Below, piece after piece: positions 15,319 to 24,122 of a stretch of DNA of 64,000 nt. The notes under the pieces are model-generated. The model was not told the DNA's origin. It saw only the letters and a list, made by a program, of their open reading frames with translations, and made no database searches. Within the stretch, counting starts at the first letter, position 1. Each line of letters opens with the position of its first letter. Origin of the DNA: Eretmocerus hayati (taxonomy: Eukaryota; Arthropoda; Insecta; Hymenoptera; Aphelinidae); contig CM056744.1 of the NCBI GenBank assembly GCA_029851415.1, positions 16,375,268 to 16,439,267 of the forward strand. The letters are read 5' to 3'. The translations under genes and the position numbers were made by a program.

Positions 15319-18300
15319 ATGGATTCAAAAATGGTTCAAGTTACAATATGTGCCTTGACGATTATTCTATTAGGAAGTTACGACCAGTGCAAAGGCATAG
15401 ATCTGACCTTTCTCACCCGAGTGCCAAATCTTACTCGAGTAACATCAGCTGATGGTCCCGTTATTGGAGAAAGGGTGACAAAAATTGATGAAAAATTTTC
15501 ATACTCAAGATTTTTAGGGATTCCTTATGCTCGGGATCCTTCAGGATCCAGAAGATTCAAGGTATGACCATTTTAATCTCCAATCGATATTAGAATCATT
15601 AATTCAATGTACCAATTTATTTCGTAGATCACATGATCATAGAGATGCGGACACTTTTCCTTTGGATCGCAAATTTTTTCCTGATGACCCACTCGACAAT
15701 AATTTATCATAGCCATTCAATTCTCAAAATGTATTTTTTTTATTAGATTGTAGGTTAAGAAAATTGATTTGGTATGAACTGATCCATGAATGGCAACAGC
15801 CCCAGGGATTGAATCAATTACTCTCTATTTGATATGTCTGTCTTCTCGTGGCAAACGAAATTTGTCGGGTCGATGTCTGTTTGGCATGGTATCATCTTCA
15901 TAGAGTTCAATGATAGTTTCAAGGATCAAATTGATGAAAGTAAAAAGCAATGCATCATACGGAAGCTATTGAATCATGCTATGAATTTTTGAAGATGGCT
16001 GATCACCTTCTCGATACTATACCGTTTCGCAGTAGTACCGACGAGTCTCTCACAAATGTCAAAGTGTTTATTGAAAGTCACTAAATAATTTCACAGCCTC
16101 CTGAAGCAATTCAAAAGTGGAACGAGCCGCTAGTAGCTGTGGTAAAGCCTCCAAAGTGTAAACAGATAGATCCAAAAAGCAAAAAACCAATCGGAGTAGA
16201 GAACTGTCTATCTATCAATGTTTACACTCCTCAGGTACTTCTATAAATTGCGGTCTCGAATTTTGAGAATATCATAGAGATTATGACTTATATTTATGCA
16301 AATCACAGATCAACTTCTCGAATAAAGAATCTCATCCTGTGATGGTGTGGATCCACGGTGGAGCATTTAAGAATGGTGACTCGGATTTCATACCTTTTCC
16401 AACAGACATGCTCGTGAGCGAAAAGATAGTCGTTGTGACTTTCAATTACAGATTAGGTGTATTTGGTAAGTATGAGTGCACCATTCTGGTCGTGTACCTT
16501 TTTTTCGAGAAATTTGAAAAATATTGGAACGTTAGGATGCAATGATTTTTCACTATACTCTCTTTGATCCTGTAAATTTTGATAGGTCACTTAGTTTTCC
16601 AACATTGTTATGCTCATCATTGTTCATTCCGAATTCTAATCTTGGAATCCCAACACTGAAATTGGTCGAATTTTTTGTTAACATTTGCGTCTTTTTCAGA
16701 GGTGTAATTGATGTTGTAAAGCTTGAGAATCGCGTCAAGAAATACGGAAGATACACTCTTCCAGATGAAATTCCTTGAAATGTATGATAGAATGAGGCAT
16801 TAATGACTCGATATGTATGTTGTGACTATTGCCATCGTTTCTAGGTTTTCTGAACCTACATCATCCCGATGCCTTGGGTAATGCGGGTCTCAAAGATCAG
16901 ATTCTAGCTTTAAAATGGGTGAAAAGAAATATTAGGAGTTTTGGCGGGGATCCCAATAAAATTACTATCGTTGGCCACACAGCTGGAGCTGTTGCCGTGG
17001 ATCTACATCTTGTATCAGACATGTCGAAGGGTACGGAAGAATGAACCATCCGAGAGGATCCTTTGCCAGTGAGTTACAATTCACAAGACCACCAATTATT
17101 ACAGGTCTATTCCATCAGTCCATCAGTATGAGTGGATCGCCACTTTGCCTCTACTGGGGTTTCCAAAATATTATGGAGGCCAAATCTAATGCCAAAGAAC
17201 TTGGTGAGAAACTCAACCTTCCTTCATCGAATAAAGATGGATTACTACAAGGACTACTCAATGCCGATGCCAATGAAATCATTCAGAAGACAGCAGAGTT
17301 AGAGTCTGTGGTGAGTGATCTTTGAGAATTGGGTATCAAGAAAAAAAATTAATTCCCACATCAAAAATTCATTCTACCTTCGCCCTCGTGACATGATATT
17401 TGCCGCAAGACTCACCATATTTTGCGTATTATTTATAAACCGCATCCCAAGAATACACCGCACTCCGAGAACGAGCCAGAAAGAGTTCAATTTGGATTAA
17501 TAAAACACCCTTTAAACATAAGCTACTAGAAAAAATGAATTATCTTTAAAAAATGAGACACTCCAAACAAATTCGCATTTTTTCCTCATATGATCCTGAT
17601 ACATATAAGATTCGACCTATTTTAATGATGATTTGATTGAAATAGATCAAGAGACTCGACAATGGAAAATTCTCATTAAGGGTCATCCGCTGCTTCTTTG
17701 CATCCCTCTTTCTCAAAAATAAAAGCCATCCTCCTGATACAAACCATTGCTCCTGACCGAGTTCCATATAAACCATGGCTCATAATGGGCCAAATGTGGT
17801 ATCACAAACTGCGTCACGATGGATTTGGAATCAAATCATATCAACTGTGTTACCTTGTAGCAATATCAACCTTTTGATTGCAGATACCATTCAGACCAAC
17901 TTTGGAGTTATCTGAGATTGCTGGGGACCAAGAAAAATTCATCACAGAGTGTATTTATAAAAAATTCCAGCAAGGGAGATTCTTTAAAGGGCCACACATA
18001 ACAGGATACTCTTCGTCTGATGCATATTCATTCTGTCGGAGTGAGTTGTAAGACAAAATATTCAGATTTATACAAATTAGTGTCGTACGCTATCTTTCCA
18101 TTGAATAATTTTGTATCTGGGCGCTCCTTTCTTACAATTTATCAAAGAAGGCGGTAACATACTCAAAAAAGTCTTTGATGGACTTACAAATCATAATCAA
18201 CATTATCTCTCAATCCTTTGTTAGAATAGAAAAAAGTTAAATTCTTTGGCAGACCCGTATTTGGAGTTGTGTTCATCCTGCAGAGAAGATTCACTCTCCT

Positions 18301-24122: not shown

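What the first reader, a model, noticed from the sequence alone, without database searches (positions are those of the whole stretch)
15319..24122. Carboxylesterase fold with Thr at the nucleophile and a ~280-residue helical extension
Seen: the nucleophile elbow reads GHTAGA (codon ACA at 16979-16981) instead of GESAGA, while the oxyanion-hole HGGAF is kept, the frame is open across ten exons and every splice phase fits. Also seen: a Cys-free charged helical tail after the domain. Known: cholinesterase-like proteins without Ser (glutactin, neurotactin, neuroligins) act in adhesion or matrix. Inference: a secreted pseudoenzyme with a new C-terminal module.
Basis: partly seen in the sequence, partly recalled or inferred. 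Interest (0 to 1): 0.75.

Follow-up and report, generated by a model that had tools for sequence, protein, structure and literature searches.

The report
Inactive-looking wasp esterase with lipoprotein-like tail
A whitefly-parasitising wasp carries an intact gene for a probably inactive, probably secreted esterase fused to a long helical tail with one water-facing and one fat-facing side; a sister gene has the same design and two further predicted genes encode the tail alone, so this looks like a small unrecognised protein family rather than a one-off or a dead gene.

Summary
The window is Eretmocerus hayati sequence; ten exons give an intact 863-aa protein identical to the annotated QAD02_006597. 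It has a carboxylesterase domain, GHTAGA at the elbow (Thr225) and a helical tail of 306 residues after Cys557.

The wasp's own genome changed the picture. A paralogue 0.9 Mb away has the same ten-exon plan, Thr at the elbow, Asp as acid and a homologous 385-residue tail. Two further loci look like two-exon genes of a signal peptide plus the tail. No fifth locus turned up in three searches. No public protein matched the window tail. A paralogue without the tail has Asp for Ser and no His.

The four tails share an amphipathic period of 3.74-3.80 residues and hydrophobic moments of 0.32-0.40, near those tabulated for apoA-I (0.39) and perilipin 3 (0.35). Best reading: a pseudoesterase from the hymenopteran JHE-like group joined to an apolipoprotein-like, lipid-surface-binding module. 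Secretion, loss of activity and lipid binding are inferred. A glutactin-like adhesion role is less likely but not excluded.

The parts
15319..15561 (+). exon 1, with N-terminal hydrophobic signal-like segment (aa 2-25)
   Evidence: splice and phase; helix 2-25; signal peptide judged by eye, no predictor run
16097..16234 (+). exon 2
   Evidence: same length (138) in sister
16309..16465 (+). exon 3, holds HGGAF oxyanion-hole motif (codons 16354-16368)
   Evidence: same length (157) in sister
16845..17030 (+). exon 4, nucleophile elbow GHTAGA
   Evidence: same length (186) in sister
16979..16981 (+). ACA codon of Thr225 in place of the catalytic Ser
17105..17310 (+). exon 5
   Evidence: same length (206) in sister
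17884..18040 (+). exon 6, holds Asp356 (GAT 18019-18021) at the catalytic acid position (Glu in 24 of 25 relatives)
   Evidence: same length (157) in sister
18575..18687 (+). exon 7
   Evidence: same length (113) in sister
18758..18938 (+). exon 8
19038..19140 (+). exon 9, begins at the altered catalytic-His loop; His463 = CAC 19043-19045
   Evidence: aa 435-477 pLDDT under 50
19141..23014 (+). intron 9 (3.9 kb), holds an inverted repeat and degenerate CGTACGC-type repeats
23015..24122 (+). exon 10: C-terminal end of the esterase domain and the whole tail in one exon, stop TGA 24120-24122
23202..24119 (+). tail, aa 558-863, amphipathic helix (aa ~584-852 analysed), homologous to three other E. 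hayati loci

Best explanation
An esterase gene of the hymenopteran JHE-like group was duplicated in the E. hayati lineage, lost its catalytic Ser (now Thr) and its normal His motif, and became joined to a long amphipathic-helix module that also occurs in the same genome at two loci without an esterase. Shown: intact gene with a same-design sister; homology of the four tails; one very regular amphipathic period in each. Inferred: it is secreted; the esterase domain no longer turns over esters but still binds a small hydrophobic ligand or a protein; the tail folds on lipid surfaces (lipoprotein particles or membranes) like an exchangeable apolipoprotein and places the domain there.
For: Model identical to annotation. 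Sister gene: 971 aa, ten exons, six identical exon lengths, Thr elbow, homologous tail, Asp acid. Window+sister clade 100/100. NG86 dN below dS in domain (0.375 vs 5.48) and tail (0.77 vs 2.37), dS saturated. Six of six tail pairs score z 4.5-13.6 above 15-residue block shuffles, 0 of 200 reaching the score. Two tail loci without esterase exon, each with a signal-like first-exon candidate. Period 3.74-3.80 in 4 of 4 tails, power 17-33 against a shuffled 95% point of 7.6-7.9. Moments 0.32-0.40, hydrophobic fraction 0.38-0.39; esterase domain as control 0.15-0.19; apoA-I 0.39/0.40 and Plin3 0.35/0.37 in PMC5889406 Table 1. Lys/Arg nearer the polar-apolar border than Asp/Glu, pooled p 0.0004.
Against: No expression, secretion, activity or lipid data. 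No Pfam family passes its cut-off for any tail; the best E-values are Nucleoporin_C 0.0035 and Senescence 0.0041 (sister) and Apolipoprotein 0.037 (window). AF2 of the tail is low confidence (mean pLDDT 40.6). A helical bundle or coiled coil could also give a regular period, and no coiled-coil control was run. At the exact apolipoprotein period 11/3 the power is low (6.3, 6.4, 0.8, 4.5). The border pattern is significant alone only in the sister and the fourth tail, not in the window tail (p 0.23). The window tail is acidic (34 K+R, 53 D+E). Moments depend on my window lengths (22, 33). His463 is probably the homologous His, so some catalytic geometry may survive.
Confidence: 0.45

Rival explanations
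1. Adhesion or matrix protein: the dead esterase domain binds a partner and the tail is a coiled-coil or bundle stalk, as in cholinesterase-like adhesion molecules.
For: Non-catalytic insect esterase-like proteins with such roles are known (PMC9958613 and PMC1761136, passages seen). Tail helical in the models, at low confidence, and strongly periodic.
Against: Nests among JHE-like esterases of the same species, though no adhesion molecule was in the tree. Little power at the heptad period 3.5 (0.5, 1.5, 0.1, 1.3). Wide apolar arc, about 160 degrees. Tail loci exist without an esterase exon. No coiled-coil control set was run.
Confidence: 0.2
2. Tail is a self-assembling helical structural module (bundle or fibre), made also on its own, with no lipid role; the esterase domain is a passenger.
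For: Four loci keep the period at only 16-29% identity. Lags 11 and 15 both correlate; right-handed coiled coils with repeats of 11 and 15 residues are recalled from general knowledge, only a search listing was seen.
Against: Ala not high (7-11%); composition and moments near apoA-I and Plin3.
Confidence: 0.2
3. Still an enzyme: Thr225-Asp356-His463 works as an altered triad, with another substrate.
For: Asp is the acid in Drosophila Est6 (PMC9958613, passages). His463 aligns with the catalytic His and sits just after the exon border seen in paralogue L013. Oxyanion motif kept.
Against: A beta-branched residue is disfavoured in the strained nucleophile elbow (recalled, general knowledge). GxxHxDE motif lost and aa 435-477 modelled under pLDDT 50. 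In the sister that column is Tyr, with a His six residues on; tree neighbour P0015 is Asp/Asp/Glu.
Confidence: 0.08
4. A decaying copy or annotation artefact; the long tail is read-through after loss of an old stop.
For: Long branches, 0.71 and 0.48, against 0.08-0.34 for five Ser rows of the same species.
Against: Two intact genes sharing plan, Thr and tail; no stops in 306 and 385 codons of tail; dN below dS in the tail, with saturated dS.
Confidence: 0.04

Closest known systems
Hymenopteran JHE-like secreted carboxylesterases (Pfam PF00135), e.g. QAD02_010684/010683/010686 of the same species (JHE-like is the source's name for wasp relatives such as Cotesia and Microplitis)
   Same: Domain at 44-45% identity; exon border before the His loop as in L013; signal-like start
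   Different: They keep Ser, Glu and His. In 9 of 18 Ser loci the exon with the PTP motif was seen, and its open frame there is 58-119 aa, with no long tail
Glutactin and other non-catalytic cholinesterase-like proteins (CLAMs)
   Same: Extracellular esterase fold lacking triad residues (passages); extra C-terminal sequence in glutactin (recalled)
   Different: Window gene sits inside the JHE-like group, but glutactin itself was not compared; its tail composition is recalled, not tested
Exchangeable apolipoproteins and perilipins (amphipathic 3-11 helices)
   Same: Hydrophobic moment and hydrophobic fraction; basic residues towards the apolar border when the four tails are pooled
   Different: No match above cut-off; best period 3.74-3.80 with lags 11 and 15, weak at exactly 11/3
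P0015 (QAD02_006129), E. hayati pseudoesterase
   Same: Same genome, non-Ser nucleophile, Asp acid; tree neighbour at 86/70, below the tool's mark
   Different: Asp at the elbow, no His at the column, no tail

Membership tests
Carboxylesterase family fold (PF00135) | Profile match above cut-off over the domain | tested here: met
   E 1e-97, 328.7 bits against cut-off 27, aa 41-532
Carboxylesterase family fold (PF00135) | Cholinesterase/esterase 3-D fold | tested here: met
Catalytically active esterase | Ser nucleophile in GxSxG | tested here: not met
   Thr225
Catalytically active esterase | Acidic residue (Glu or Asp) of the triad | tested here: met
   Asp356 aligns with Glu in 24 of 25 relatives
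Catalytically active esterase | His in GxxHxD/E motif | tested here: inconclusive
   His463 aligns but the stretch reads GGSHRMR; aa 435-477 under pLDDT 50
Glutactin (clade H) / CLAMs | Phylogenetic place with glutactin or the neuro/developmental clades | tested here: inconclusive
   Groups with E. hayati Ser paralogues at 95/93, then 91/88 and, with Phymastichus, 99/98, but no glutactin or CLAM sequence was in the tree
Glutactin (clade H) / CLAMs | Non-catalytic, extracellular, adhesive | not testable with these tools
   needs protein work
Exchangeable apolipoprotein (PF01442) | Profile match above cut-off | tested here: not met
   14.2 bits against cut-off 90
Exchangeable apolipoprotein (PF01442) | Long amphipathic helix with a clear hydrophobic moment | tested here: met
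   0.32-0.40 in four tails against 0.14-0.19 after shuffling and 0.15-0.19 in the esterase domain
Exchangeable apolipoprotein (PF01442) | 11-residue (3-11 helix) repeat | tested here: not met
   power at 11/3 only 0.8-6.4 in the four tails; best period 3.74-3.80
Exchangeable apolipoprotein (PF01442) | Lipid-dependent folding | not testable with these tools
   needs circular dichroism and liposomes

The most novel reading that the evidence does not exclude
E. hayati has evolved a private family of secreted apolipoprotein-like proteins, and fusion of this module to a dead JHE-like esterase, kept in two genes, makes a lipid-surface-bound ligand trap (for juvenile hormone or another ester) used against or inside the whitefly host.
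Probability: 0.15. Interest if true: 0.75.

Novelty: new variant of a known kind. Interest (0 to 1): 0.52.

Why it matters
Non-catalytic esterase-like proteins are known in insects, but here loss of the catalytic Ser, a new C-terminal module and stand-alone copies of that module lie together in one genome, with active-looking paralogues for comparison. That makes it testable how a hormone-type esterase turns into a binding protein, and whether an apolipoprotein-like helix can arise anew and be shared between genes. The sister gene was not among the 120 best of 5,195 public hits, although at 54% domain identity one would expect it second, so it is perhaps not annotated as a whole.

Tried and rejected
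Relatives of the tail: a region search of 5.8 billion proteins returned only the protein itself among 3,186 candidates; a search with the tail alone scored none of 704 candidates at E 1 or better. That tool needs shared 5-residue words, so distant relatives can be missed. PDB profile search: 7 weak hits, best E 0.0059 (ZMYND11), no clear theme. IMG/VR scan: 269 pattern matches, none a relative by tblastn; this gives no support for a viral origin. PHROGs: 11 weak families, none named. Tail ends of P0003 and P0061 look alike by eye but do not exceed block shuffles (z at most 1.5): not accepted as homologues. YN00 failed for all regions and dS for aa 311-544 could not be computed. The tail-alone AF2 model was too weak to search, and the structural rows listed cover aa 35-559 of the full model, so the tail fold is untested. 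Heptad coiled coil considered and disfavoured. Literature: no paper held carboxylesterase, parasitoid and pseudoenzyme together. In the two E. hayati genome papers 'esterase' occurs 0 times in PMC10482854 and twice in PMC13116730, both in its reference list. PMC10734938 passages gave nothing used here. Failed scripts or wrong input: exon ends off by one, mended; wrong frame, mended.

Full report

Active site. The elbow is GHTAGA, Thr225. In alignment A1 the 25 other proteins have Ser in 23, Asp in 1 and Gly in 1; the acid column has Glu in 24 and Asp in 1, and the window has Asp356; the His column has His in 24 and Glu in 1, and the window has His463. In the Ser paralogue L013 exon 9 starts just before GAAH; in the window it starts just before GSH, so His463 is probably the same His with one codon lost before it, but the HxDE motif after it is gone. 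The triad thus reads Thr-Asp-His in an altered loop. Loss of activity is likely but not shown.

Paralogues. An elbow search found 68 matches in the genome, the window included. I read 20 of the best 22 others: 18 Ser, 1 Asp (L016, P0015), 1 Thr (L009). The Thr locus is a full gene at C4:15504423-15489480, minus strand: ten exons, 971 residues, one open frame, exons 2-7 with the same lengths as the window gene (138, 157, 186, 206, 157, 113) and all phases equal. It also has Asp as acid; in the His column it has Tyr, with a His six residues on. Its last exon runs from the esterase C-terminus into a 385-residue tail without Cys. In a maximum-likelihood tree of 31 rows that I chose and this genome, the two Thr proteins group at 100/100, next to P0015 at 86/70 (below the tool's mark of 95/80), and with five Ser rows of E. 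hayati at 95/93. The sister is not among the 120 best hits listed of 5,195.

The tail family. The window tail gave seven matches: itself, the sister twice (E 4.6e-10 and 0.007), C4:15478927-15479586 (E 3.3e-7), C4:14892529-14892933 (E 0.028) and two at E above 9 that I left aside. Searches at E 1 with the sister tail and the third tail returned the same four loci and no fifth; the tool calls such counts lower bounds. Each of the six pairs among the four tails exceeds 200 shuffles of 15-residue blocks, which keep period and composition (z 4.5 to 13.6; 0 of 200 reached the score in any pair). In the third and fourth loci no esterase exon was found in about 9.7 and 9 kb upstream by tblastn with seven proteins. 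Under criteria that I set (hydrophobic start, GT donor), each has one upstream first-exon donor: MEMKIIFSLSVILFTGSLGTQGAGLRSPPITK (two nested ATGs) and MIIFVYLISIIATLGNQGYARVPSISK, both ending in K before GTAAGC in phase 0. A phase-0 acceptor lies at the tail: one in the third locus, the best of three in the fourth. These two-exon models are predictions without transcript support. All four loci lie within about 1.5 Mb of one chromosome. Direction of the fusion is open: the stand-alone exon 2 starts about where the tail starts, but the fused genes have no intron there.

What the tail looks like. A Fourier scan of hydrophobicity gives best periods of 3.738, 3.780, 3.762 and 3.797 residues, power 33, 27, 22 and 17, against a 95% point of 7.6-7.9 for shuffles. 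Lags 11 and 15 both correlate. Power is low at the heptad period (0.1-1.5) and also at exactly 11/3 (0.8-6.4). An angular map shows an apolar arc of about 160 degrees, its central 120 degrees nearly free of charge. With a charge-blind face, Lys/Arg lie nearer the border and Asp/Glu nearer the polar centre (pooled 96:39 against 87:84, p 0.0004); alone this is significant in the sister (0.013) and fourth tail (0.013), not in the window tail (0.23) or third (0.45). Mean hydrophobic moments over windows of 22 or 33 are 0.32-0.40 in the tails, 0.14-0.19 after shuffling and 0.15-0.19 in the esterase domain; hydrophobic fraction 0.38-0.39, aromatic 0.037-0.056, charged 0.24-0.29. Table 1 of PMC5889406 (section 6 read) gives apoA-I 0.39, 0.40, 0.065, 0.35; Plin3 0.35, 0.37, 0.01, 0.23; Plin4 a moment of 0.257. 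Those values come from Heliquest on chosen helices, so the comparison is rough. No coiled-coil proteins were run as a control; the statistics favour but do not prove lipid binding.

Constraint. Between window and sister NG86 gives dN 0.375 and dS 5.48 for the domain (503 codons, 54% identity), dN 0.77 and dS 2.37 for the tail (316 codons, 25% identity). dS is beyond saturation, so only the order dN below dS should be used. Together with two intact copies this speaks against a dead gene.

Reading. The evidence fits a pseudoesterase, derived from JHE-like esterases and probably secreted, carrying an apolipoprotein-like module that also seems to exist alone. What it binds and where it acts are unknown; use in the whitefly host is possible but nothing here shows it. 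PMC13116730 (passages) says that the egg-laying mode of E. hayati may limit venom delivery.

Known background. [quoted passage not shown] I found no paper on this gene in searches.

Noticed in passing
window 57177-61627, minus strand: BEL/Pao-type retroelement pieces: Integrase_H2C2 + DUF5641, Peptidase_A17, DUF1759.
   Followed up: partly
window 19893-20246 and 20394-20747: 354-nt inverted repeat, 90% complementary, inside intron 9: perhaps a foldback element.
   Followed up: no
window 21052-22478: Field of degenerate repeats around CGTACGCGAA in intron 9, with recurring spacings near 84-98, 181-195 and 267-276 nt.
   Followed up: no
window 619-960 (-) and 1713-2063 (+): Closely similar ORFs of 114 and 117 aa on opposite strands: an inverted duplicate.
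   Followed up: no
window 56539-56943 (-) and 62395-62847 (-): Two closely similar ORFs on either side of the BEL/Pao pieces (HIHTYA...VERVIYTPSQGAPPTA), perhaps part of its terminal repeats.
   Followed up: no
window 48814-49551 (-); 54196-54867 (+): ORFs of 246 and 224 aa without a Pfam match at E 0.01.
   Followed up: no
window 9498-9571 (+): tRNA-Thr (GGT) predicted by ARAGORN, with no Rfam match at gathering score.
   Followed up: no
L016 (C4:5231269-5241268), P0015: Second pseudoesterase: GKDAGA elbow (Asp), Asp acid, Glu in the His column, no long tail.
   Followed up: partly
P0109 (Diachasma alloeum, named juvenile hormone esterase): Gly in the nucleophile column (GYGSG) although Glu and His are kept: the name may mislead.
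   Followed up: no
P0003 (QAD02_008547) aa 553-641; P0061 C-terminus: Short amphipathic ends after other E. hayati esterase domains; not demonstrably related to the tail family.
   Followed up: partly
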